A stretch of 64,000 bases of DNA from Sciurus carolinensis (taxonomy: Eukaryota > Chordata > Mammalia > Rodentia > Sciuridae): the NCBI RefSeq assembly GCF_902686445.1, contig NC_062232.1:95342932-95406931 (forward strand). Direction: 5' to 3'. Under the pieces are notes generated by a model. It had not been told where the DNA came from, searched no databases, and saw only the letters and a program-made list of their open reading frames with translations. Made by a program: the position numbers and the translations under genes. The stretch's first letter is position 1, and every line of letters starts with the position of its first letter. This document shows, one piece after another, positions 4,693-61,079 of the stretch.

Positions 4693-5418
4693 GACATGAT
4701 GTTATGGAATTTACAATCTAGTTGGTGAAGTAGAGGCAGGACAGTAAGCAAAGATCTGGGTGGCACACTTACTTCATAAAGGCACATATACTTTGCTAAT
4801 AAGGAGTGGGGGACAACTGGGAAAAATACTCTTCCCACAACAACAGGCAAAAAGAAAATTTTATTTATTTAAATAATATACTTGCAGGTCTACATAGCTT
4901 TGCAGGTTTAAACTGTGAATCATTATTTTTTTAATTACAAATTTCTGTGATTATGAAATAGATATCCTCCAAAAGAAAGAATCTTCAGCCAAGTTCCCAC
5001 AGGTCGGCCCTCTTCTTGGATGATTTCACCTACCAATATTTGGGGTCCCCTGATAAGAGTATCCTTTAAAGTCATTGGATGAATTTATACAAGTACAGAG
5101 AGTTCAGTCTTGAATTTCTGATTCTCTATCCAGACATTATCATAATATTTGCCACTGGGCACTTATGATGCTTTAAGATGTATATATTTAATTTATCACA
5201 GTGGAATTATACCACTCCAGGTCCTCCCTCTGATAGCCATGGTTTCTTTTCAGGTAGCATTGTCTTTGTAATTTATTCGCAAGTGCTCAACCAAACTAGG
5301 CACATTGGGGTAATAGGTTTCTCACTTCGCTACTAGAATTTAACTCATGAAATCACATGTCTGTGTACAAAAATAGATTCTAGGTTATTTAGTGAGGAAA
5401 TGCATTATCTATTAGTAA

Positions 5419-6626: not shown

Positions 6627-6843
6627 TTTAATTTACTTATTTTTTTTTTTTTTGGTACTGGGTATTCAACCCAGGGGCCCTCAACCACTGAGCTACATCC
6701 CCAGCCCTTTTATTTTGAGAGAGGGTCTCCCAAAATTGCTTAGACCCCTTGCTAAATTGATGAAGCTAGCCTTGAACTTTTGATTCTTCTGCCTCAGTCT
6801 CTCAAGTCACTGGTATTACAGGCATGTACCACTGAGCCTGGCT
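6609..6843 (-). mobile_element. B1-dID SINE next to a (TA)n run
   Basis: Long T-run, then 'ggtactgggtattcaacccag' to 'accactgagcctggct'. Confidence 0.85.
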
Positions 6844-6958
6844 ATCTTCATTTCTTTTGAATAATTATTTTAAATCCTAACTCCCTTTTACTGGAGATTT
6901 ATTTATGCATTTTAGTGAAAGATAATCTCAAAACCAGGCTATAGAAACACATTTGGAG

Positions 6959-8024: not shown

Positions 8025-8129
8025 CACATCCCATTGGGCATTCATCATCTCCCACTGGGCCTCCATCATCTCCCACTGGGCCTCCATCATGGGCGACTGG
8101 GTATCCATCATCATTGCTGGGCATCTGTT
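8025..8129. repeat. Minisatellite, five 21-bp units
   Basis: Units such as CATCTCCCACTGGGCCTCCAT start at 8025, 8046, 8067, 8088 and 8109; the second and third are identical. The unit is a multiple of three, so long frames stay open on both strands (153 aa sense, 73 aa antisense), giving a 7-residue repeat like HHLPLGL. No sign of a real gene. Confidence 0.85.
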
Positions 8130-8884
8130 GAGTACCGCTATGTCTGTTGGGCATCCACAGTCTCCCACCAGGCATTGTGGTCTCTGCTGATACTCTGCCA
8201 TTTCACCACCAGTGACTTCCATGAGAATGCTGCTAACAGGTCCAAGGTGCTGTCACCTGGTGCTACCAAATCTACAGACCTTCAAGATACCACACGGTGC
8301 TGCATTTTCTTCAGTCTTTGTTGTACTCAGCAATGTTTCTTGCACAAATTAGAAAAACGTCCCCTATAACTATAGCACACTTTGCTATCTAAACATTTTT
8401 AAAAAATTGTCCCTCTCCCCTTCACAAAGTTTCTCTGTAAAACAGTTCTGTTTTTTTTTTTTTTTTTTTTTTTCTTTTTTTCTTTTTTTACTTTATCTCC
8501 TCAGGGATTACACATTGGGTAGGACCGATCTAGAGTTTATGTACTGAGGTCTTAATTCCCATCCTTGGGCATTCAAACAAAACTTTCCCTCTGAAAGGTC
8601 AATTGGGGACCTTGTTAATCTTGTGTACTTGTATAACTAGCATTTACCTCTTTATCTGGTCACTTAATATTTTTAATAACTGAACAAAAGTATCCTTTTC
8701 TCTTGCAAATCAATTTATGAAGTTGGATACTTTGGATTTCCCAACACCACACATCTATACTTGTGAATAATAATTTTTTGGTTGAAATGCCTTCTCCTAA
8801 TATCCTCTTTCCTTCTATCAACACACTTAACCATTTCACTACAGACTCTTTAACCTACAGGGGAAAAAATGTCATTATCAGATG

Positions 8885-36004: not shown

Positions 36005-36006
<2 letters not shown>

Positions 36007-36080
36007 AGCCATGCTGGGTTGAACCCAGTGTCTCGTGCATGTTAAACATGTGCTCTACCACTGAGCTACATGCACCCATT
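36003..36080 (-). mobile_element. ID SINE monomer with (CT)n tail
   Basis: 'agccatgctgggttgaacccag' to 'cactgagctacatgcaccca'. Its tail has become the long (CT)n run at 35930-36004, (GA)n in the sense direction. Confidence 0.7.
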
Positions 36081-41108: not shown

Positions 41109-41114
41109 AATAGT
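41109..41114. repeat. Target site duplication, left copy (AATAGT)
   Basis: This hexamer directly precedes the 3' LTR on the plus strand and is identical to 48357-48362. Six bases is the class II (betaretrovirus/ERVK) duplication length. Confidence 0.95.
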
Positions 41115-41462
41115 TGTCCCGACCCGCGGGACATCAACACGGGACCGCAAACCTGAGAGAGAAGGAATGAAGGGACAAGAGACGCAGGGAGAGGCAGCAA
41201 GACAGGAATTCTGATCAAGCTGCAAATTTTTATTGTTCACACAGGGGTATTTATACTGAGGGAAGGAGGGGTGTGACAAGGTGCAGGCTGGTTGGCTGTG
41301 TTCTTCTGCTGGGTTCCTGATAGGGTGCAAATTCGCGCCGGCCGGGAGGTGAGGTTCGCGCCGCCGGGAAGGTGAAGTTTGCGCCGGCGGGAAGGGAGGG
41401 GCGCTGCTGCTTATTGTAAAGATCAGAATGTTCTCAGAATAAGAACTTCTTGGTCCCTGACA
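41115..41462 (-). repeat. 3' LTR of the endogenous retrovirus (348 bp)
   Basis: Same length as the 5' LTR and identical over 347 of 348 positions by direct reading; the one difference is at 41127. It is preceded in the sense direction by a polypurine tract and followed by the AATAGT duplication. It supplies the poly(A) signal for the provirus. Confidence 0.95.
41229..41234 (-). terminator. Poly(A) signal AATAAA in the 3' LTR
   Basis: AATAAA on the minus strand, followed within about 35 bases by T/GT-rich sequence suited to cleavage. The same hexamer in the 5' LTR (48123-48128) lies just upstream of the inferred cap site. It would therefore be left out of the 5' end of the transcript and used only at the 3' end. 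Confidence 0.75.
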
Positions 41463-41476
41463 TTTCCCCCTTTCTT
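41463..41476 (-). promoter_or_regulatory. Polypurine tract
   Basis: The minus strand reads AAGAAAGGGGGAAA directly before the TG of the 3' LTR. It is an all-purine plus-strand primer in the expected place. Confidence 0.92.
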
Positions 41477-41584
41477 ATATAAAATTATTGACCATTTTTC
41501 GATAGCCATATTTTAAGGGGGTGATAGAGGCTATGCGCTGAGGCGGGGGCGCGGCTTGCCCGAACAGGTACAGAGCTGGAGTGA
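41477..41584 (-). other. Retroviral 3' untranslated DNA between CTE and PPT
   Basis: About 108 bases with no ORF. The part next to the CTE is GC-rich and the part next to the PPT is AT-rich. No further signal recognised. Confidence 0.6.
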
Positions 41585-41730
41585 CAATCCCTCGGGAACT
41601 GCGCCTGTCTTAGGTTGTCCGTGGCAGAACAACATCCTTACCCGTCATTGGATAATGAGGCTCTAGCCCTCATTTCCTGTCTTAGGTTGGTATGAGCTCT
41701 CACGAATCTTACCCGTCATTGGCTGTCCAG
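41585..41730 (-). promoter_or_regulatory. Constitutive transport element (CTE), MPMV type
   Basis: Between env and the PPT lie two copies each of CCTGTCTTAGGTTG (41604-41617, 41676-41689) and TTACCCGTCATTGG (41638-41651, 41709-41722), written on the plus strand. On the RNA strand these read CAACCTAAGACAGG and CCAATGACGGGTAA, arranged alternately about 71-72 nt apart. That is the layout of the MPMV/SRV CTE, whose two internal loops bind the export receptor NXF1 (TAP) and let unspliced RNA leave the nucleus. The flanking GCGCAG and CGAGGGATTG also resemble the MPMV element from memory. Confidence 0.88.
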
Positions 41731-41736
41731 TTCAGC

Positions 41737-42342
41737 TCACAGGGGTGATGGTCTTTTAAGATCATCATCACGATCCATCATCTCCAGTCGATGGTAATGA
41801 ACCTGAATAGGTTTCGCCTGTATAGCCTCAATTTGAGCTTTAAGAAAAGCCATGATCTTGTTGAATATCAAAGGACCTATAGATACAATAAGCAGCAAGC
41901 AAAGGAGGGGACCTAAGAAGGGAAGAAGATAGGGAAGGAGTCCACTGAATCCAGTCCATAGTGGATTATCAGCCAGTGCTTGTCGGCGTTTTTCTGAGTC
42001 TTCCTGCAGCTGTTTGATCTTGTCCTTAACAATTCCTGACTTGTTGGCATAGAAACAGCATTTTTCCTGCAAAGACAGACAAATGCCTCCCTGTTCGGCA
42101 GTTAGAAGGTCTAAACCTCTCCTATTTTGTAGGACCACTTCTGCTAAGGAATCCACCTGATCTTGAAGATCTTGTATGGTGCTTGAGAGTATCTGTACAT
42201 CAGAAATCAATTGTCTGGATAATTTTGTATATTGAGTAAGAGAGACCCCCAAACCAGCAGTACCTGAGGCCACTGCTGTAGAGGTTGTGCAAGAACAGGG
42301 TCTGTCATTCAGGGGATTTTTCGCATAGATTGTTAGCTGCAT
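41737..42342 (-). pseudogene. env: Env remnant: transmembrane subunit only, surface subunit deleted (201 aa open)
   Basis: What remains of the envelope gene. The frame starts at an ATG preceded in frame by TAG, so it does not extend upstream. After about 18 residues of unclear origin it enters a small, Gly-rich segment like the end of a fusion peptide. A heptad-repeat coiled coil follows (about 40-80), then the gamma-type immunosuppressive-domain region and CX6CC motif (Cys88, Cys95, Cys96). One NKS glycosylation site, a hydrophobic membrane span (about 132-160) and a cytoplasmic tail complete it. No signal peptide or receptor-binding surface subunit is present, so it cannot act as an entry protein. 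The TM part is undamaged, which fits one clean, recent deletion rather than slow decay. Whether it is expressed is unknown. Confidence 0.88.
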
Positions 42343-44974
42343 CTATAAGAGAGGAAGATTCATCCTCAGGGGGAGGGTTTCCGTCCCTGGGTTGTGGTAA
42401 ATCATTGACCTGTTTGACCAGGCGTTCTGGTAACCATCTTGGGGCTGCTTGTTCTTGATCTAAAATACAAGCTGAGCCTCGTCCCCAAATGAGGACGGGA
42501 TCTGGGCCTTTCCATTTATTTGTTAAAGGATCGCGCCACATAACAGATGGGCGAGCAGAACTAGAAGAGGGATGCCAATGTCTGTCTGCGGTCGAATGTC
42601 CTTCATTGTCTAGGGTAAGAAAGTTAAGAGCAAATAATGCATGATTAAGGCGATCCCTGGGAGTGGTAAATGCAAGGGAAGAGGCCTTAAGGCGGGTAAG
42701 CCAGGTTTTTAAGGTGAGGTGTGCACGTTCCACAATGCCTTGACCTTGAGGGTTATATGGAATTCCAGTAGTATGAGAGATTTGAAGAGTGGCACAAAAC
42801 TGTTTGAACTTGGTACTGGTATATGCAGGGCCATTATCTGTCTTAATATGTGCTGGCTTTCCCATTATGGAAAAGGCTGAGACAAGATGAGAAATGACAT
42901 CCTTGGTAGCTTCTCCGCAATGCGGTGATGCAAAAATAAAGCCACTAAAGGTATCTATGGAAACATGTATGTACTTTGTTTTCCCAAATTCAGGAAAGTG
43001 AGTAACATCCATCTGCCAAATCTGATTGGGCAGTAATCCTCGAGGGTTAACACCCAGATGTTGAATAGGAAGGGAGACAACGCAAGCAGGACACGCTTTT
43101 ACAATTTCCCTTGCTTGTTGCCTGGTAATTTTACAAAGTAGCCGAAGGCTCTGAGAATTTAAGTGGTGAAGTTTGTGTAAATCTGTGGCCTCTCGGATGG
43201 ATCCAATAAGAACTGGGAAAAGGGACCGAGTGGCTGCATCAGCCTGAGCATTACCCCGTGATAGGGGACCGGGAAGATCAGAATGTGCTCTAATGTGTCC
43301 TAAGAAAAATGGATGTTTTCTAGCCTGAATTAGTCGTTGAAGCTGGTTAAACAAAAAGGCTGCGTTGGAGGAAGCCTTAATGGCGGGTGAAATCTCCAAT
43401 AGGGGCACAGAATGGGCAATGTAAGCACTGTCTGTATAAATATTAATAGGTTTATCAAAAAATGTCATAAAGACTTGTGTTATAGCAAACAATTCTACAA
43501 GCTGTGCTGATGGATAGGCAGTGTCAAAGGTGGTGGGCTGATTATCAACAACAAAGGCTGCACGGCCATTGCTGGAGCCATCTGTAAAAACAGTAAGGGC
43601 TTGTGGAATAGGAGCCTTCCGAGTAACCCGAGGAAAAATAAATGGATGTAACTGAGCAAAATGCAAAAGGGGGTCATTGGGAAGATGGTTATCGATTATT
43701 CCCAAAAAGCCTGATAGAGCAATACCCCATTCATCCCTCGTCTGTAGCAAAAATTGGGTTTGATCCTTAGTGTATGGAATCAGAATGCTATCAGGGTCTT
43801 TGCCAAAATGTTGTCGAGAAAGCAAGCGACCTTTAATAATGATAGAAGCTACCTGAGCAGGATAGACAGCAATAACTTTAGAGGATGTGGCGGGCAAATG
43901 AACCCAAAGCAAGGGGCAACCTTTATTTTTAAAATGTGGATCCCGCTGCCAGAATAGTCCCGTGGGTGTATGAGGGGTGTGTAATATAACCAAAACCAAA
44001 GGAAGGTTATAAGATATTTGTGTAACAAATTGTTGAGCAATGGCTTCTGTGACTTGAATTAATGCTTGCTGTGCCTCGGGAGTAAGCTCTCGAGGAGAAG
44101 AAGGGTCAGAATCTCCCCTTAAAATATCATTAAGAGGCAAAAGCACATAGGTGGGCAGTTTTAAATATGGTCTTAGCCATTGGATATCCCCTAGTAGTTT
44201 TTGGAAATCGTTAAGAGTGTGGAGATGGTCCACACGCAATTGTATATTAGGGATTTGAATTTGATTAGTTTGAAGTTTGAGGCCCAAGTAGGTGTAGGGG
44301 TCCTGTGTCTGAACCTTATCAGGGGCTATCTGAAGCCCCAAGGCAGTAAGGGCTTTATAGAGATCCAAATAACAATTATTAAGATCATAGGTATTAGGTG
44401 CAGCAATTAACAAATCATCCATATAATGTAATATATAAACTTGTGGCCACCGCTCTCTCACAGGGTCTACTGCTTGAGCAACATATTTTTGGCAAAGACT
44501 AGGGCTGTTAGCCATACCCTGGGGAAGGACCTTCCATTGAAATCTTTGCATAGGGCCCTGAAAATTGATGCGGGGGAGGCTGAAAGCAAAATAGGGTCTG
44601 TCATCAGGATGTAAAGGAATAGTAAAAAAGCAATCTTTTAAGTCGATGACCATTTTATAATAGTCCCTAGGAATAGCTACCGGTGTAGGGATGCCTGGCT
44701 GTAATGCCCCCATCGGGCGCATAACCTTATTGATAGCGCGCAAATCCTGTAAAAGGCGCCATTTGCCTGATTTCTTCTTAATAACAAAAATAGGAGTATT
44801 CCAGGGTGAGGTTGAGGGTTCCACATGGCCGGCTGTCAACTGTTCCTGTACTAACATAGAGGCAGCCTCTAATTTTTCTTGGGTAAGGGGCCACTGATCC
44901 ACCCACACAGGAGTTTGAGTTTCCCAAATAATTTTGTCTGCATGGGGTACAGGAGGGTCAGGGACCGACACTAA
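42305..44974 (-). CDS. pol: Pol: reverse transcriptase, RNase H, integrase, intact (888 aa after the slip)
   Basis: Copies viral RNA into DNA and inserts it. Numbering begins at the GTG codon at 44971. The RT palm has Asp110 (VIDLKD) and YMDD at 183-186. RNase H has Asp464 (FTDGSS), Glu493, Asp514 (YTDSAY) and Asp578, a full catalytic set. Integrase has an HHCC zinc site (His599, His603, Cys627, Cys630) and the DD35E triad Asp655, Asp712, Glu748, with exactly 35 residues between the last two. A C-terminal DNA-binding region follows ([13 protein letters not shown]). No stop or frame break interrupts it. The tail overlaps the env remnant by about 38 bases and contains that frame's splice acceptor, so the coding end looks native. 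Confidence 0.95.
42343..42358 (-). promoter_or_regulatory. Splice acceptor directly before the env-remnant ATG
   Basis: The minus strand reads TCTTCCTCTCTTATAG|ATG, a good polypyrimidine tract with AG immediately followed by the start codon. Joining to the donor at 47867 would give a short RNA whose first ATG is the TM frame. It lies inside the coding tail of pol, the usual place for the env acceptor in type D viruses. Confidence 0.75.
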
Positions 44975-45924
44975 AAATCCACATACCCAAGTCCAAATTT
45001 GTCTGTTTTTTGTATGGGCTGTACAGGCTCAACCTGTCCTTGTCCTAGCCTCCCAAGGCCTGTACCAGGGATAAAGCCCATACGAAGCATTTGATGAGTG
45101 ACTAAAGAGTCGGGACTAGCAAGAATAACTTTCATTTGGCTTAGAATGTCTCGTCCCCAAAGGTTGACAGGGAGATCAGGAACAACAAAGGGGGTAACGG
45201 TTCCTTTATTCCCTGTGTTATCTTTTGTGTCAGTCCAATTAAGCACCCTGGAGCTAACTAAGGGGTTTCTTGATTGCCCTATTCCTTTAAGGTCAGTTAG
45301 TGATGAGGTGAGGGGCCATTCTGATGGCCAATATTTTTGAGAAATAACTGTGGCATCCGCACCAGTATCTAGGATCCCTTGGAATTTCTTTCCTTCAATA
45401 AATAAGGTAAGAGTGGGTCTTTTGTGGGAGATAGGTTGGACCCAATACACATCAGAGGAACCTAAAGAGGCTGTGTTTCCTGGTGAATTTCCTGAATTGA
45501 GGGGAAGGAGTATTAATTGTGCAATTTTTGTTCCTGCAGGGATGGCCGCTACTCCGTTAACAGCTGTGGCCAGTATTTTAATTTCTCCAGTGTAATCATC
45601 ATCAATGATGCCAGGGAAGACCTGAACACCTTGTAAGGTGGTAGGAGCTCTCCCAAGAATAAGAGCACACATATGAGGTGGAGGGGGGCCTACAACCCCA
45701 GTGGGTATTATTTGAGGTCCTTGCATAGAGTCTAATATTGTATCGGTGGAGGCACAGAGGTCCAATCCTGCGCTGCCTGGGGTAGCACGTTGGAGGGAGG
45801 TGATTGTGGAGAAGGACAGGGAGCCTGGATTGGGTTGGGAGTCTGAGAGGGAACAAACCTTATTGCCCCTGGGTTTGCTCTGGGGGTGGTCGGGGCCAGG
45901 GGCTGGCCCCGAGAGGAGTTTCCC
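44971..45924 (-). CDS. pro: Pro: dUTPase, aspartic protease and G-patch, made by frameshifting
   Basis: Read from the gag-pro shift site; there is no need for its own start codon. About 53 codons after the shift, a trimeric dUTPase domain begins at the AGLDLCAST motif (45765 region). It continues with PTGV, IIDDDYTGEI and IPAGTKIAQL, which hold the expected catalytic Asp region. The retroviral protease follows, with catalytic ILDTGADATVIS near 45365 and the C-terminal NLWGRDIL motif. The frame ends in a glycine-rich G-patch (MGFIPGTGLGRLGQG) typical of betaretroviruses. The products would cleave Gag and Gag-Pro-Pol and remove dUTP during reverse transcription. The frame is fully open and ends with TAG at 44973-44971, which abuts the pro-pol slip site. 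Confidence 0.93.
   Translation of the reverse strand, partial: GKLLSGPAPGPDHPQSKPRGNKVCSLSDSQPNPGSLSFSTITSLQRATPGSAGLDLCASTDTILDSMQGPQIIPTGVVGPPPPHMCALILGRAPTTLQGVQVFPGIIDDDYTGEIKILATAVNGVAAIPAGTKIAQLILLPLNSGNSPGNTASLGSSDVYWVQPISHKRPTLTLFIEGKKFQGILDTGADATVISQKYWPSEWPLTSSLTDLKGIGQSRNPLVSSRVLNWTDTKDNTGNKGTVTPFVVPDLPVNLWGRDILSQMKVILASPDSLVTHQMLRMGFIPGTGLGRLGQGQVEPVQPIQKTDKFGLGYVDF
44974..44980 (-). promoter_or_regulatory. Pro-pol -1 frameshift site GGATTTT
   Basis: In the pro frame the codons read G GAT TTT and are followed at once by the TAG stop. This resembles the G GAU UUA class used at the MMTV pro-pol junction. Slipping back one base gives TTA GTG and enters the open pol frame. A short GGTC-CCT-GACC hairpin follows, weaker than the one at gag-pro. 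Confidence 0.7.
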
Positions 45925-47852
45925 GAGAAGTTAGAGGGAATAGGCTGTCCAAGGGCATTGGTCTTGGATCTACACTCCTTGGCCCAGTGGCGACCTTTAC
46001 CACATTTAGGGCAAAGGGTGAGCGGAGGTGGTTTAGCCCCTGTTTGAGGAAATATGGGTCCTTGACCCAGTTTCCCTGTTGGGCAGTCTCGCGCAAAATG
46101 GCCAGGTTGTTTGCAAGTAAAGCAAGTACGTGGGCCAGGGTGGTGAAGGGCCTTGGTGAAGGCGGCACCAATGGCGAGACCCATGGCATGGGCTGTTCCT
46201 ACCCCGGCACACAGCCTAATGAAGTCAGAAAGGTCCCCTTTATCTTTGTGGGGCCGAAGAACATCTTGACATATTGGGTTGGCATTTTCAAAGGCAAGAT
46301 ATTTTACAAAGGAGCTCTCATTTTCACTTGGTCCAAGTAGGCGCTCCGCAGTTAGATTAAGCCGGGCAACAAAGTCACTATAAGGCTCGTCTGGACCCTG
46401 ATGAATTTTTGCTAGGGAGGTGGTGGCCGAGCCCTTTTGAGGGAGCCGTCTCCAAGCATGCAAACCAGCAGTTTGAACCTGCGCTAGGAGCCCAGTAGGA
46501 AAGCGCGCCTGTTTAGGGTTGGTATCAAATGGCGCATTACCCACTAATTTAACATAGGTCCAGGATTTAGAGGAAGCCTTGGTTGAATTTTTTTGGGCAG
46601 TTTCCCGACAGTATTCCCTAAAGTCTGCGTTCCACAACAGGAAGTCACCTGCACTGAGGGTGGCTCGGGCCAAAAATTTCCAATCATTAGGGGTGAGCCA
46701 CTGTGTACTATGGTTCTCTAGCAAGGCCAGTGTATAAGGTGCAGTGGGGCCATACTGTGTACAAGCCTTTTTAAGTCTTTCAAGAAAGCGGAGGCTCAGC
46801 CTTTTATAAGAACCAAGGGCTCCACTCTGTCCAGAGGTGGGCTCCTCCTCATCCCCTGATTCCTGGTCCTCCTCTTGTTCCCTCTCTGGTTCTACCTCTT
46901 GTTCCTCCCCTGGTTCCTCTTCCTGACTTCCTTCTAAATTCTCTGCTTCAGTTTGGGGGGGCTGATCTGCTTGACTGCGAGTGACTGGAAAGGCAAGAAC
47001 AGGCTGACCACGTGGCTTCACCTTACGAGTATTAAGGGGTTTTGGGCCAGTTTGTGTTAACTCTGTGCCCAAGGCCAGTGAGCGAAGCTCGGCATCAAGG
47101 GCTTTTAGTTCTTTTAAAAGTTGGATTTGTTCCCGCCTATGTTGGAGAGACTCGCGTAAAGGGGTTAGATTAGGCAAGGGAAGCGGGGAAAAAATGTCTG
47201 GGGGGGCAGTAGGTCCCTGAGGGACCGGAGCACAAAAGGCAGGGGGTGTATAAGTGGGAAGTGGATTTGTAAGAGGTGGCAGGTCTGGAAAATGGTGTTG
47301 AGCCACTGCCTCCTCCAGGGTGGCCTCATCCTCTGGGGTCAACTCATCATGGGGATTTAAAACCGGATAAATCTTAGGGGGATTTTTAGAGGACTCCTTT
47401 GGTAAGGTGGGGTCTGGGAGGTTCCCAGGGTCTGGGAGGGTCCCAGGGTCCTGAGAAGGCTGAGCAGGGGGCATTTGAATACTAACCGAAGGGCATGCCG
47501 ATGGGGGGCGAGAGGTGGATTGCATTGCCTGCTCCCCAATCTTTACAAGTTTTAAAGTACCACTGTCAAAGGGTGAACTTTTAAGAATCTCATTAATTAA
47601 ATTCCAATAAGAAAAGACAGTGACGGGCACCTTTTGAGGACCAAAAGTCTCATAATAATCTTTGAGGCAGTCTCCTACTCTGAGCCACCTTTTACCATCA
47701 ATCGATCCCTCGAGGGGAAACCAAGGACACAAATCCTCTATGTATGAAAAGAATAATCTTAAATCCTTTTTCTTAACACGCGCTCCCCGAGTCTTGAGGG
47801 CCTCCTCGAGACCCGTCAGAAACAAATCATGTGACGAGACTGCTTGTCCCAT
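45732..47852 (-). CDS. gag: Gag polyprotein, type-D-like, intact (706 aa)
   Basis: Structural precursor for virus-like particles. The start ATG lies in a strong context (ACCATGG). The N-terminus MGQ fits a myristoylation signal. Residues about 42-62 (CPWFP...KRWLRVGDC) resemble the cytoplasmic targeting/retention signal of type D matrix, including Arg55, the residue known in MPMV to keep assembly cytoplasmic. A PTAP late motif is at 214-217 and a second PTAP at 369-372 inside capsid. A Glu-rich tract lies at about 302-338. The major homology region QGPDEPYSDFVARL is at 485-498. Two CX2CX4HX4C zinc knuckles are at 577-590 and 614-627, with all ligands present. No internal stop. The 3' end overlaps pro in the -1 frame. 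Confidence 0.95.
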   Translation of the reverse strand: MGQAVSSHDLFLTGLEEALKTRGARVKKKDLRLFFSYIEDLCPWFPLEGSIDGKRWLRVGDCLKDYYETFGPQKVPVTVFSYWNLINEILKSSPFDSGTLKLVKIGEQAMQSTSRPPSACPSVSIQMPPAQPSQDPGTLPDPGNLPDPTLPKESSKNPPKIYPVLNPHDELTPEDEATLEEAVAQHHFPDLPPLTNPLPTYTPPAFCAPVPQGPTAPPDIFSPLPLPNLTPLRESLQHRREQIQLLKELKALDAELRSLALGTELTQTGPKPLNTRKVKPRGQPVLAFPVTRSQADQPPQTEAENLEGSQEEEPGEEQEVEPEREQEEDQESGDEEEPTSGQSGALGSYKRLSLRFLERLKKACTQYGPTAPYTLALLENHSTQWLTPNDWKFLARATLSAGDFLLWNADFREYCRETAQKNSTKASSKSWTYVKLVGNAPFDTNPKQARFPTGLLAQVQTAGLHAWRRLPQKGSATTSLAKIHQGPDEPYSDFVARLNLTAERLLGPSENESSFVKYLAFENANPICQDVLRPHKDKGDLSDFIRLCAGVGTAHAMGLAIGAAFTKALHHPGPRTCFTCKQPGHFARDCPTGKLGQGPIFPQTGAKPPPLTLCPKCGKGRHWAKECRSKTNALGQPIPSNFSGNSSRGQPLAPTTPRANPGAIRFVPSQTPNPIQAPCPSPQSPPSNVLPQAAQDWTSVPPPIQY
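45892..45924 (-). promoter_or_regulatory. Gag-pro -1 ribosomal frameshift signal
   Basis: The slippery heptamer GGGAAAC (45924 to 45918, minus strand) is in the right phase, G GGA AAC, in the gag frame. After a 7-nt spacer comes a perfect 8-bp hairpin, GGGGCCAG-CCC-CTGGCCCC (45910 to 45892). The CCC loop could pair with the GGGG further down (near 45870) to make a pseudoknot; that part is inference. The -1 frame then stays open through dUTPase, protease and G-patch. Confidence 0.9.
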
Positions 47853-47988
47853 GGTACGTCACTTACCTTGCGCTGACCTCACTCTCCTCCTGGATCTGAC
47901 TCCCGGTTGCGTCTACCAGGGCGATCCCGAATCCTGCTTGGCCAAGTCTTCCCCGGAGGGCAGCGTTCCGCTTCTCAAAGTTTCCAAT
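47853..47988 (-). other. Untranslated leader between PBS and gag
   Basis: About 136 bases that would hold the packaging and dimerisation signals, which I cannot identify by eye. The major splice donor lies near its gag end. It is short compared with typical type D leaders. Confidence 0.6.
47861..47869 (-). promoter_or_regulatory. Major splice donor in the leader
   Basis: The minus strand reads AAG|GTAAGT, a perfect match to the U1 consensus, with the exon ending at 47867. It lies 14 bases before the gag ATG. Spliced RNA would therefore skip gag and join a downstream acceptor such as 42343. Confidence 0.8.
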
Positions 47989-48006
47989 CGACCACGTTGG
48001 GCGCCA
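47989..48006 (-). promoter_or_regulatory. Primer binding site, tRNA-Lys1,2 type
   Basis: Two bases after the LTR end, the minus strand reads TGGCGCCCAACGTGGTCG. The first 15 bases match the tRNA-Lys(1,2) 3' end used by MPMV-group viruses and the last three diverge. This fixes the reverse-transcription primer and the position of the 5' LTR. Confidence 0.9.
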
Positions 48007-48141
48007 ACTGTCCCGACCCGTGGGACATCAACACGGGACCGCAAACCTGAGAGAGAAGGAATGAAGGGACAAGAGACGCAGGGAGAGGCAGCAAGACAGG
48101 AATTCTGATCAAGCTGCAAATTTTTATTGTTCACACAGGGG

Positions 48142-48149
48142 TATTTATA
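48142..48149 (-). promoter_or_regulatory. TATA box of the 5' LTR promoter
   Basis: TATAAATA reads on the minus strand within GTATAAATAC. Transcription would be expected to begin about 25-30 bases on, near 48120. An identical copy is in the 3' LTR at 41248-41255. Confidence 0.8.
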
Positions 48150-48225
48150 CTGAGGGAAGGAGGGGTGTGACAAGGTGCAGGCTGGTTGGCTGTGTTCTTC
48201 TGCTGGGTTCCTGATAGGGTGCAAA

Positions 48226-48294
48226 TTCGCGCCGGCCGGGAGGTGAGGTTCGCGCCGCCGGGAAGGTGAAGTTTGCGCCGGCGGGAAGGGAGGG
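48226..48294. repeat. Three 23-bp GC-rich tandem units in U3
   Basis: Units at 48226-48248, 48249-48271 and 48272-48294 share the core TT(C/T)GCGCCG followed by CGGGA(A/G)G. All are rich in CpG. An identical array is at 41332-41400. Tandem U3 units are typical retroviral enhancer modules, but I cannot name the factor. Confidence 0.75.
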
Positions 48295-48313
48295 GCGCTG
48301 CTGCTTATTGTAA

Positions 48314-48328
48314 AGATCAGAATGTTCT
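48314..48328. promoter_or_regulatory. Steroid (glucocorticoid-type) response element in U3
   Basis: On the plus strand AGATCA-GAA-TGTTCT matches the palindromic AGAACAnnnTGTTCT consensus at all but one half-site base. It sits near the outer end of U3, about 165 bp upstream of the TATA box, a typical enhancer position. A second copy is at 41420-41434. MMTV, another betaretrovirus, is known to be hormone-driven through such elements; use here is inference. Confidence 0.5.
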
Positions 48329-48356
48329 CAGAATAAGAACTTCTTGGTCCCTGACA

Positions 48357-48362
48357 AATAGT
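48357..48362. repeat. Target site duplication, right copy (AATAGT)
   Basis: It directly follows the 5' LTR and matches 41109-41114. The match shows that both ends belong to one integration and that neither LTR was exchanged by recombination with another locus. Confidence 0.95.
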
Positions 48363-49240: not shown

Positions 49241-49327
49241 TTCATTTTTTTGCGGTGCTGGGGATTGAACCCAGGGCCTTGTGCTTGCAAGGCAAGCACT
49301 CTACCAACTGAGCTACATCCCCAGCCC
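49241..49327 (-). mobile_element. ID SINE with perfect 14-bp target duplication
   Basis: 'gcggtgctggggattgaacccaggg' to 'gagctacatccccagccc', almost unmutated. TAATGTATTATCTT flanks it at 49227-49240 and 49328-49341, so it is a recent insertion. Confidence 0.9.
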
Positions 49328-59417: not shown

Positions 59418-61079
59418 GGGCTTGTGAGATGGTTTGTTTCAACTGGGATAGACTTGACAAAAAAGTGTGTACTGCCCTCTAGTCTTCCAGCAATAGAAAT
59501 GCCTTTGCTGTCATGTAAGACACCTCTGTGTATATTACTTAGAAAGGCAAGCAGTTGGGGTGCCCAAATTGGGAGTGGAACTGGAGAAGGGAACCCATGA
59601 AATATCTTGGCACCTGTAACTGTCTGGAGGATTTTCTCCTTTTACTTAGATTGGTGAGAAATGCTAGTTTTGAGGTATGGGGTTGGTATCTGAGGAAGAG
59701 GCGGCTTATTAGTTACCAGCCTTCTAGGTCATATTGACGATTCACAGCCAGTTCACCAGGAACAGAAGACAAGGTCATAAGGAGTCCTTGCAACGTCATT
59801 CACACACAAGAGCATCCATCAACGGCAAGTCATTCAACAGAAACAGCAACTTCATGGTGCAGCAGTTGATCTTCCCATGGGCCGGGAGGTTGAACATCCT
59901 GCATAGTGCTGCCAGGAAATCCCTATTCTATACTAAGAGGGGGCCAGCTGGTTGCATATGTAGGATGTCCCATCTCCCGGCCCACTTCATCGTGACAGAC
60001 ACCAGAAACATCACTCTGCTTCACTGAAGAACCATAAAATCACCAGTCAAGGATACGGTGATGTTGAGCTACATGAGTAGAAAGGTACTCAGATAAATGT
60101 ATTTTAATAGAGGGCATAGCACTGAGTGTTATGACTTTGGATCATAAGAGCAATGAATATGTGTGTGAATCTGTAAACTTGGGGCTAGCAGGTCTGCACC
60201 GAACAATATTAGTTGGCCAAAGGGATGGCAAGCTGTCAATTACCTCTAGTCACACAGGGAATGTCTTCAGCGCTGTGCCTTGTATTCTCTGCACTATATC
60301 ATCTTTGGGAGATTAGGAATTGGGGACACAAATTTAAGGTGGCCAGAGGCAGAGTAGCTACAGGAAGAGAGAATCGAATTCCTACTTGCAGAAAGAAAGT
60401 TTATAGATGGAAAAGTAGAAATAGAAAATGAAATGAGCCTCAAAGTCATAAGTGGGCTACTTGGGAGTAGTAGTCCAGAGAGGACTCAATAGTTCTAAAT
60501 TGGGTAGAACCTAATTCAGGCAGGAATCGTTACAAGGGGTGGGAGTAGATATGATTGCAAGGGAGAAAGTTAATGACATGTTCCCCAAATCATGTTAGAT
60601 GTAGTATCCAATCAAATTCAGGGAACCCTGTCAAGGGCAAGGTCACAGGAAATATCAAGAGTAGGGACTAGCTCTCAAAAACATGGGGACAGGAATAAAA
60701 TAATAAAGAAAAATGCAGGCAATCATTTAACAAGGCCATTTCCAAAGACTCTGGAGTTCTAAAAAGTATTTATCTGCTCTGCCTTCAAATCTGGATTAAG
60801 TTTCTAGTCAACTACCCTGGTTTTGGCACTCTTTAAAGGATGGAAAGCAGGCCAATCCTATGCCCAGAAAGACTGACTCAAGTTCGGGAATTTGGAACAT
60901 TTATATTCTTTTAATTTCCTCAGTAGCACAGAATTTCCACTGAATTCTGGGCTTAGTACACAGCCCCAAAATCTGTGGTTTCATACCCCAAAATCCCCAA
61001 ATTCCATGCAAATGTATGCAAATTCAAATATTGCCTTATATTTGTGGAATCTATAGAGAAACCTCTCTTTGGCCAGAGA
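59418..61079. other. Unique DNA, GC-richer than its surroundings
   Basis: Several overlapping plus-strand frames (97 aa at 59734-60027, 72 aa at 60213-60431) without recognisable domains. Could include an old pseudogene or UTR, but nothing identifies it. Confidence 0.35.

What the first reader, a model, noticed from the sequence alone, without database searches (positions are those of the whole stretch)
41115..48356. A recent, env-less type-D-like retrovirus with all replication frames open
Seen: open gag, pro and pol with complete catalytic residues, both LTRs, PBS, PPT, frameshift sites and target duplication. Only Env SU is missing. Known: loss of env often goes with a switch to intracellular retrotransposition and copy-number growth (IAP and MusD in mouse). 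Inferred: this may be a master or recent daughter copy of a type-D lineage that made this switch in squirrels.
Basis: partly seen in the sequence, partly recalled or inferred. Interest (0 to 1): 0.9.

Follow-up and report, generated by a model that had tools for sequence, protein, structure and literature searches.

The report
Envelope-deleted retrovirus that recently multiplied
This is one of 96 places in one animal's genome that carry the same envelope-gene deletion of a type-D retrovirus; the family likely multiplied within about the last million years, and likely did so inside cells without an envelope of its own, while relatives with a complete envelope frame still sit in the same genome.

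Summary
A 7,242-bp provirus (minus strand, 41115-48356) has near-identical LTRs, a 6-bp target duplication and open gag, pro and pol with catalytic residues. One correction: besides SU, the env signal peptide, furin site and start of the TM fusion peptide are gone.

The exact 39-bp deletion junction occurs 96 times. In 30 copies studied, 27 TM frames are intact; 22 LTR pairs differ by 0.26% (about 0.6 My at 2.2e-9). Five copies share a second, gag deletion: a non-autonomous subfamily has also spread.

Env-bearing relatives sit in the same genome: TM 98.3-98.7% identical, 7 env matches with an open 619-codon frame, LTR pairs 1.1% apart. The 201-codon remnant is the 619 frame minus 418 codons, in frame; a 514-codon type shares its left breakpoint, suggesting stepwise loss.

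How it spread is open. Env loss, the burst and a missing PPxY late motif favour intracellular retrotransposition (0.5); kept membrane signals in Gag and open env relatives favour borrowed Env (0.38). New member of a known kind. No call names the host.

The parts
41109..41114 (.). target-site duplication, left copy
   Evidence: AATAGT
41115..41462 (-). 3' LTR (348 bp)
   Evidence: 347/348 identical to the other LTR; LTR-start pattern 854 times in the host genome
41463..41476 (-). polypurine tract before the 3' LTR
41575..41738 (-). CTE-like RNA export element (predicted), two motifs each present twice
   Evidence: no Rfam match
41737..42342 (-). env remnant, 201 codons plus stop: env start and about 20 residues, then TM
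   Evidence: TLV_coat 409-560/560, E 6.8e-71; 619-codon env frame minus 418 codons in frame
42280..42304 (-). env deletion junction, shared by 96 places in the host genome
42343..42357 (-). predicted splice acceptor; exon 2 would begin with the env ATG
42305..44971 (-). pol (RT, RNase H, integrase), 888 codons listed; frame open from 45028
44971..45930 (-). pro frame (dUTPase, protease, G-patch)
45918..45924 (-). gag-pro slippery site GGGAAAC, hairpin behind it
45732..47852 (-). gag, 706 codons (p10 MA, p24 CA, two zinc knuckles); 46034-47512 is deleted in a spread subfamily
47861..47870 (-). predicted splice donor CAAG|GTAAGT
47992..48006 (-). primer-binding site, tRNA-Lys type (tRNA identity recalled)
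48009..48356 (-). 5' LTR; TATAAATA 48149-48142, AATAAA 48128-48123
48357..48362 (.). target-site duplication, right copy
   Evidence: AATAGT

Best explanation
This provirus is one of 96 places in its genome with the same in-frame env deletion, and the family likely multiplied inside germ-line cells by retrotransposition with its own Gag, protease and polymerase, without needing an envelope. Shown: the anatomy, the shared junction, the near-identical copies with different target duplications, LTR pairs 0.26% apart on average, and older env-bearing relatives. Inferred: full-length RNA leaves the nucleus by the CTE-like element, cores form in type-D fashion in the cytoplasm, and the new DNA enters the same cell's genome; copies without gag use the Gag of intact ones in trans. 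Likelihood of this route about 0.5; identity as a young env-deleted family above 0.97. (Before the genome search answered I put borrowed Env first, 0.45 to 0.35; the burst and the family-wide PPxY loss changed that.)
For: 96 exact junctions, control 0; 40 of 40 scored matches to a 221-bp junction probe are full length and listed at 100% (541 first-look candidates). 22 of 30 copies with both LTRs in the fetched pieces: 21 with a perfect 6-bp TSD, 20 mismatches in 7,673 sites. Env-less pairs with at most one mismatch 18 of 22, env-bearing 1 of 9 (p 0.0005, but both sets were picked). PPxY absent in 14 of 14 env-less copies, present in both 619-type copies read. Env-less betaretroviral bursts are read as intracellular in MEBrv 3 (section 10 of PMC11334065) and IAP/MusD (passages of PMC6466679).
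Against: Gag keeps MGxxxS and R55 in 16 of 16 env-less copies read and PTAP in 14 of 14; in IAP env loss came with a new Gag address (passages of PMC10924933). Env-bearing relatives with open 619-codon frames exist (7 of 122 scored rows), one with a single LTR mismatch in 393 (E7), so Env in trans was available at about the same time. No expression or particle data. All env-less copies may trace to one source, so their Gag features count as one observation.
Confidence: 0.5

Rival explanations
1. Borrowed envelope: env-less RNA would be packed into budding particles and carried to other germ cells with the Env of an env-bearing relative, as a parasite of that relative.
For: Open 619-codon env frames in the same genome, TM 98.3-98.7% and pol end 98.8-99.5% identical where unbroken; one of them as young as the env-less burst; Gag membrane signals kept. 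In cattle ERVK, defective copies dominate new insertions, by what the authors take to be trans-complementation (passages of PMC10924933).
Against: PPxY lost in 14 of 14 env-less copies read; young LTR pairs are mostly env-less in the picked sets.
Confidence: 0.38
2. Spread by the host's own duplication or by assembly doubling rather than by reverse transcription.
For: Some of the 96 places lie on small contigs that may be alternate haplotypes; two copies lie 18 kb apart on C3.
Against: 21 of 22 copies with both LTRs have a perfect 6-bp TSD of their own.
Confidence: 0.03
3. A one-off defective provirus.
For: None after the genome search; earlier only P0001 was known to share the junction.
Against: 96 places.
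Confidence: 0.01

Closest known systems
MEBrv 3 endogenous retroviruses of dasyurid marsupials (PMC11334065, section 10 read)
   Same: Betaretroviral gag-pro-pol open, about 7.3 kb, env lost, immunosuppressive-domain remnant behind pol, young multi-copy family
   Different: Remnant described as degraded; here a 201-codon frame is intact in 27 of 30 copies. Sequences not compared
ERV-PDRV.1-Cynomys ludovicianus (PMC7354474, sections 17 and 25 read)
   Same: Betaretroviral gag-pro-pol, env not found, in ground squirrels; 652 of 3156 alignments cover over 80% at over 90% identity in a prairie dog genome
[quoted passage not shown]
   Same: Type-D layout, C-type TM, dUTPase-protease-G-patch pro
   Different: Env 605 aa, PBS tRNA-Gln, LTR 403 bp, Gag 567 aa; here env deleted, Lys-type PBS, LTR 348 bp, Gag 706 aa
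Marmota flaviventris Gag-like protein (P0241), unnamed jgi Pol (P0121)
   Same: Gag 76% over 100%; Pol 88% over 100%, 100/100 sister
   Different: Single proteins; env state unknown
DrERV and simian type-D viruses
   Same: Pol 65% and 57-58%; DrERV in the same 5-row clade, 100/99
   Different: DrERV has an env gene with stops (passages of PMC10768307); distinct lineages
Mouse IAP, MusD/ETn; cattle ERVK (passages of PMC6466679, PMC10924933)
   Same: Env-less or further deleted copies that multiply beside more complete ones
   Different: IAP changed its Gag address; here the membrane signals of Gag are kept

Membership tests
Betaretrovirus, type D | p10-type MA with the cytoplasmic targeting region (R55) | tested here: met
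   Gag_p10 E 8.5e-23; colinear with M-PMV MA, R55 kept; role of R55 recalled
Betaretrovirus, type D | separate pro frame (dUTPase, protease, G-patch) reached by -1 frameshifts | tested here: met
   frameshifting itself untested
Betaretrovirus, type D | C-type Env TM with CX6CC and immunosuppressive region | tested here: met
Betaretrovirus, type D | Pol falls with betaretroviruses | tested here: met
   28-row tree, (27 of 120 listed relatives used)
Betaretrovirus, type D | constitutive transport element with two internal loops | tested here: inconclusive
   fold z only -1.33, no Rfam match
Betaretrovirus, type D | intracytoplasmic assembly | not testable with these tools
   needs microscopy
GPDRV | tRNA-Gln PBS, 403-bp LTR, 567-aa Gag, complete env | tested here: not met
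   against PMC7354474
ERV-PDRV.1 | identity to the published consensus | not testable with these tools
   sequence not held
Env-less multi-copy ERV (superspreader pattern) | many copies sharing one env deletion | tested here: met
   96 junctions
Env-less multi-copy ERV (superspreader pattern) | recent spread by reverse transcription | tested here: met
   own TSD in 21 of 22, LTR pairs 0.26% apart
IAP/MusD-like intracellular retrotransposon | Gag no longer addressed to the plasma membrane | tested here: not met
   MGxxxS and R55 in 16 of 16, PTAP in 14 of 14; prediction only. PPxY is lost
IAP/MusD-like intracellular retrotransposon | retrotransposition without Env | not testable with these tools
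   needs an assay

The most novel reading that the evidence does not exclude
Env was not simply lost but pared down in steps that kept its own start codon, splice acceptor and reading frame (619 to 514 to 201 codons), because a SU-less TM protein with an intact immunosuppressive region is useful to the element: the 201-residue mini-Env would be made from a spliced message and damp immunity or block related retroviruses while the family multiplies.
Probability: 0.12. Interest if true: 0.75.

Novelty: new member of a known kind. Interest (0 to 1): 0.5.

Why it matters
One genome holds env-complete, env-shortened, env-less and gag-deleted forms of one type-D family, closely alike and datable by their LTRs. 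That makes the order of events (late-motif loss, first env deletion, second env deletion, burst) directly testable, instead of being inferred from long-separated lineages as in IAP and MusD. It also gives a test of whether env loss alone, with the membrane signals of Gag still present, is followed by copy-number growth.

Tried and rejected
Led nowhere: other copies in the window (none); IMG/VR by Pol (no pattern match), TM (28 pattern matches, none confirmed), exact junction (0); Rfam for the CTE region (0); my regex for the major homology region (the conserved columns Q485 G486 P487 E489 F494 show it); a fold of the wrong stretch (repeated); an out-of-frame query; PMC2279246 and PMC3358877 are not held; the last paper search, for squirrel SINEs, was useless. 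A count of the 514-type junction did not complete. The 206-bp shortening of five copies was not located (pieces of three of them mapped without a gap).

Considered and rejected: my first mechanism (borrowed Env ahead) and first wording that P0001 was the only sharer; both were written before the genome search answered and are replaced. P0001 (3 of 201 residues different) remains of unknown origin. Selection on TM: window against six env-bearing copies gives 4-5 synonymous and 3-5 amino-acid-changing differences each, a weak hint (0.049 for 4 of 9 under a 0.75 share), not independent and mostly from before the deletion.

Full report
What is there. On the minus strand a provirus spans 41115-48356 (7,242 bp). 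The 348-bp LTRs differ at one base, at a CpG. AATAGT lies on both sides. Gag carries p10, p24 and two CCHC knuckles; pro carries dUTPase, protease and G-patch; pol carries RT, thumb, RNase H and integrase, without internal stops. Catalytic residues are in place: RT D110/D185/D186, RNase H D464/E493/D514/D578, integrase H599/H603/C627/C630 and D655/D712/E748, protease LDTG. The frames step by -1 twice. GGGAAAC is in frame at 45924-45918, followed after five bases by a hairpin (z -3.12, 1 of 200 shuffles as stable). For pro-pol, GGATTTT before the pro stop fits the kind recalled for MMTV; the RNA behind it is unremarkable (z 0.19). Missense defects cannot be excluded.

Relatives in public proteins. 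TM frame: 315 matches among 677 candidates, best 120 listed; I aligned 12 and read one more. P0001 alone among the listed rows covers the frame end to end; it is 198/201 identical with the same first 34 residues. GPDRV and ERV-PDRV.1 are not seen by name, but many rows have no name and names are cut.

The family in its own genome. The window lies at C30:95342932-95406931 of a 2.8-Gb assembly. A 221-bp junction probe had 541 first-look candidates; 40 were scored and all 40 match end to end, the window at 399 bits, the other 39 at 395. The exact 39-bp junction occurs 96 times; up to three mismatches were allowed, the rows shown have none, and the backwards control gives 0. Some places are on small contigs and may be alternate haplotypes. 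The first 39 bases of the LTR occur 854 times with up to three mismatches, so solo LTRs and relatives with like LTRs are numerous; only the first 100 are listed.

Age and structure. I studied the 30 copies that came as loci; they are the best matches and so lean to the young. 27 of 30 have an intact 201-codon frame; 24 of 29 full-length remnants are identical. Both LTRs lay in the fetched pieces for 22; 21 have a perfect 6-bp TSD. LTR pairs differ at 20 of 7,673 sites, 0.26%: 0.59 My (0.36-0.91) at 2.2e-9, point values 0.29-0.87 over four assumed rates. Among the 100 listed LTR starts I counted by eye 20 pairs spaced 6,886-6,895 (full length), five at 6,687-6,689 and five at 5,406-5,418. The last five share gag breakpoints near 46034 and 47512 (L012, L071-L074): a gag-deleted, non-autonomous subfamily. 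Four further copies have private deletions.

Env-bearing relatives. P0002, a public protein with SU and TM, found 122 scored matches among 3,482 candidates; 7 rows show an open frame of exactly 619 and no stop, 7 of exactly 514. The pol-end pattern occurs 327 times, so over 200 places have this pol end without the 39-bp junction. In six env loci (L087-L092) the pol end is 98.8-99.5% identical where unbroken, TM 98.3-98.7%, the stretch before the LTR 85-96%, and the LTR about 80% over some 395 columns with about 50 gap columns in five of six. The env-less family therefore carries a different LTR type; L011, a junction copy with a 396-bp LTR, lies between (15 substitutions to the window type, 14-17 to four env-type LTRs). 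Relative to the 619 frame the window lacks 1,254 bp, exactly 418 codons; the 514 type lacks 315 bp at the same left point. Two of six frames are 619, two 514, two broken. Nine env-bearing LTR pairs differ at 39 sites, 1.1% (2.5 My at 2.2e-9), 8 of 9 with TSD; the youngest, E7, has one mismatch in 393 and a 619 frame. A tenth had no 5' LTR in its piece. These copies were picked for their env, so the ages are not a fair sample.

Gag features. MGxxxS and R55 are present in 16 of 16 env-less copies where the gag start was readable (in the other 14 it lay outside the pieces or was missing), MGxxxS in 8 of 9 and R55 in 9 of 9 env-bearing copies. PPxY is absent in 14 of 14 env-less copies fully spanned, with PTAP in all 14; in env-bearing copies it is present in two 619-type copies, absent in one 514-type copy and in one gapped copy, and one piece missed the place. 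In distant relatives PPxY is in 15 of 16 and P(S/T)AP in 4 of 16.

How it spread. Loss of env, a burst from what looks like one source and loss of PPxY fit intracellular retrotransposition. Kept membrane signals, open env relatives and one young env-bearing copy fit borrowed Env. I put them at 0.5 and 0.38.

Export element. Two motifs occur twice each before the 3' LTR (7 repeated 12-mers, none in 5,000 simple shuffles); the fold puts AAGACA opposite AAUGAC in two internal loops of opposite orientation. A long stem with two internal loops is described for MPMV, and AAGACA for the NXF1-recruiting element of MLV (passages of PMC7551171). The fold alone is not unusual (z -1.33), so this is likely, not shown.

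Known or new. Env-less betaretroviral families are published (MEBrv 3; ERV-PDRV.1). In the listings I saw no title or abstract reporting this one; most subscription journals are not in that library.

Setting. mir-1911 (8129-8187, +; 91.8 bits, cut-off 88) and mir-448 (59881-59992, +) flank the provirus; both are given as intronic to HTR2C and running with the gene (passages of PMC4186326), so the provirus likely lies in an HTR2C intron, antisense. A squirrel host fits a repeat motif (14 hits, 0.04 expected; link recalled) and the marmot-like Gag, but no call names the host.

Noticed in passing
window 8129-8187 and 59881-59992: mir-1911 and mir-448 flank the provirus, so the window is likely HTR2C intronic and the provirus antisense.
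   Followed up: partly
L012, L071, L072, L073, L074: Five copies share one gag deletion of about 1.48 kb (window 46034-47512): a non-autonomous subfamily within the env-less family.
   Followed up: yes
L011 (G000 C7:122012038-122018813): A junction copy with a 396-bp LTR, between the 348-bp type and the env-bearing type: possibly an older or recombinant form.
   Followed up: partly
G000 C3:141096326, C3:172269975, C6:111110195, C7:105835970, C8:143453084: Five LTR pairs are about 206 bp closer together than in full copies; the missing stretch was not located.
   Followed up: partly
P0308 (protein, jgi source): A 510-residue protein (28 member sequences) fuses Gag p10 (83% over 16% of this Gag) in frame to Env SU and TM.
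   Followed up: partly
window 48226-48293: A 23-bp GC-rich unit three times in U3, with two GGCGCGAA motifs in the 5' LTR that resemble E2F sites (recalled).
   Followed up: no
window 49250-49322 and 36006-36075: Two Rfam tRNA matches not called by ARAGORN; likely tRNA-derived SINEs.
   Followed up: no
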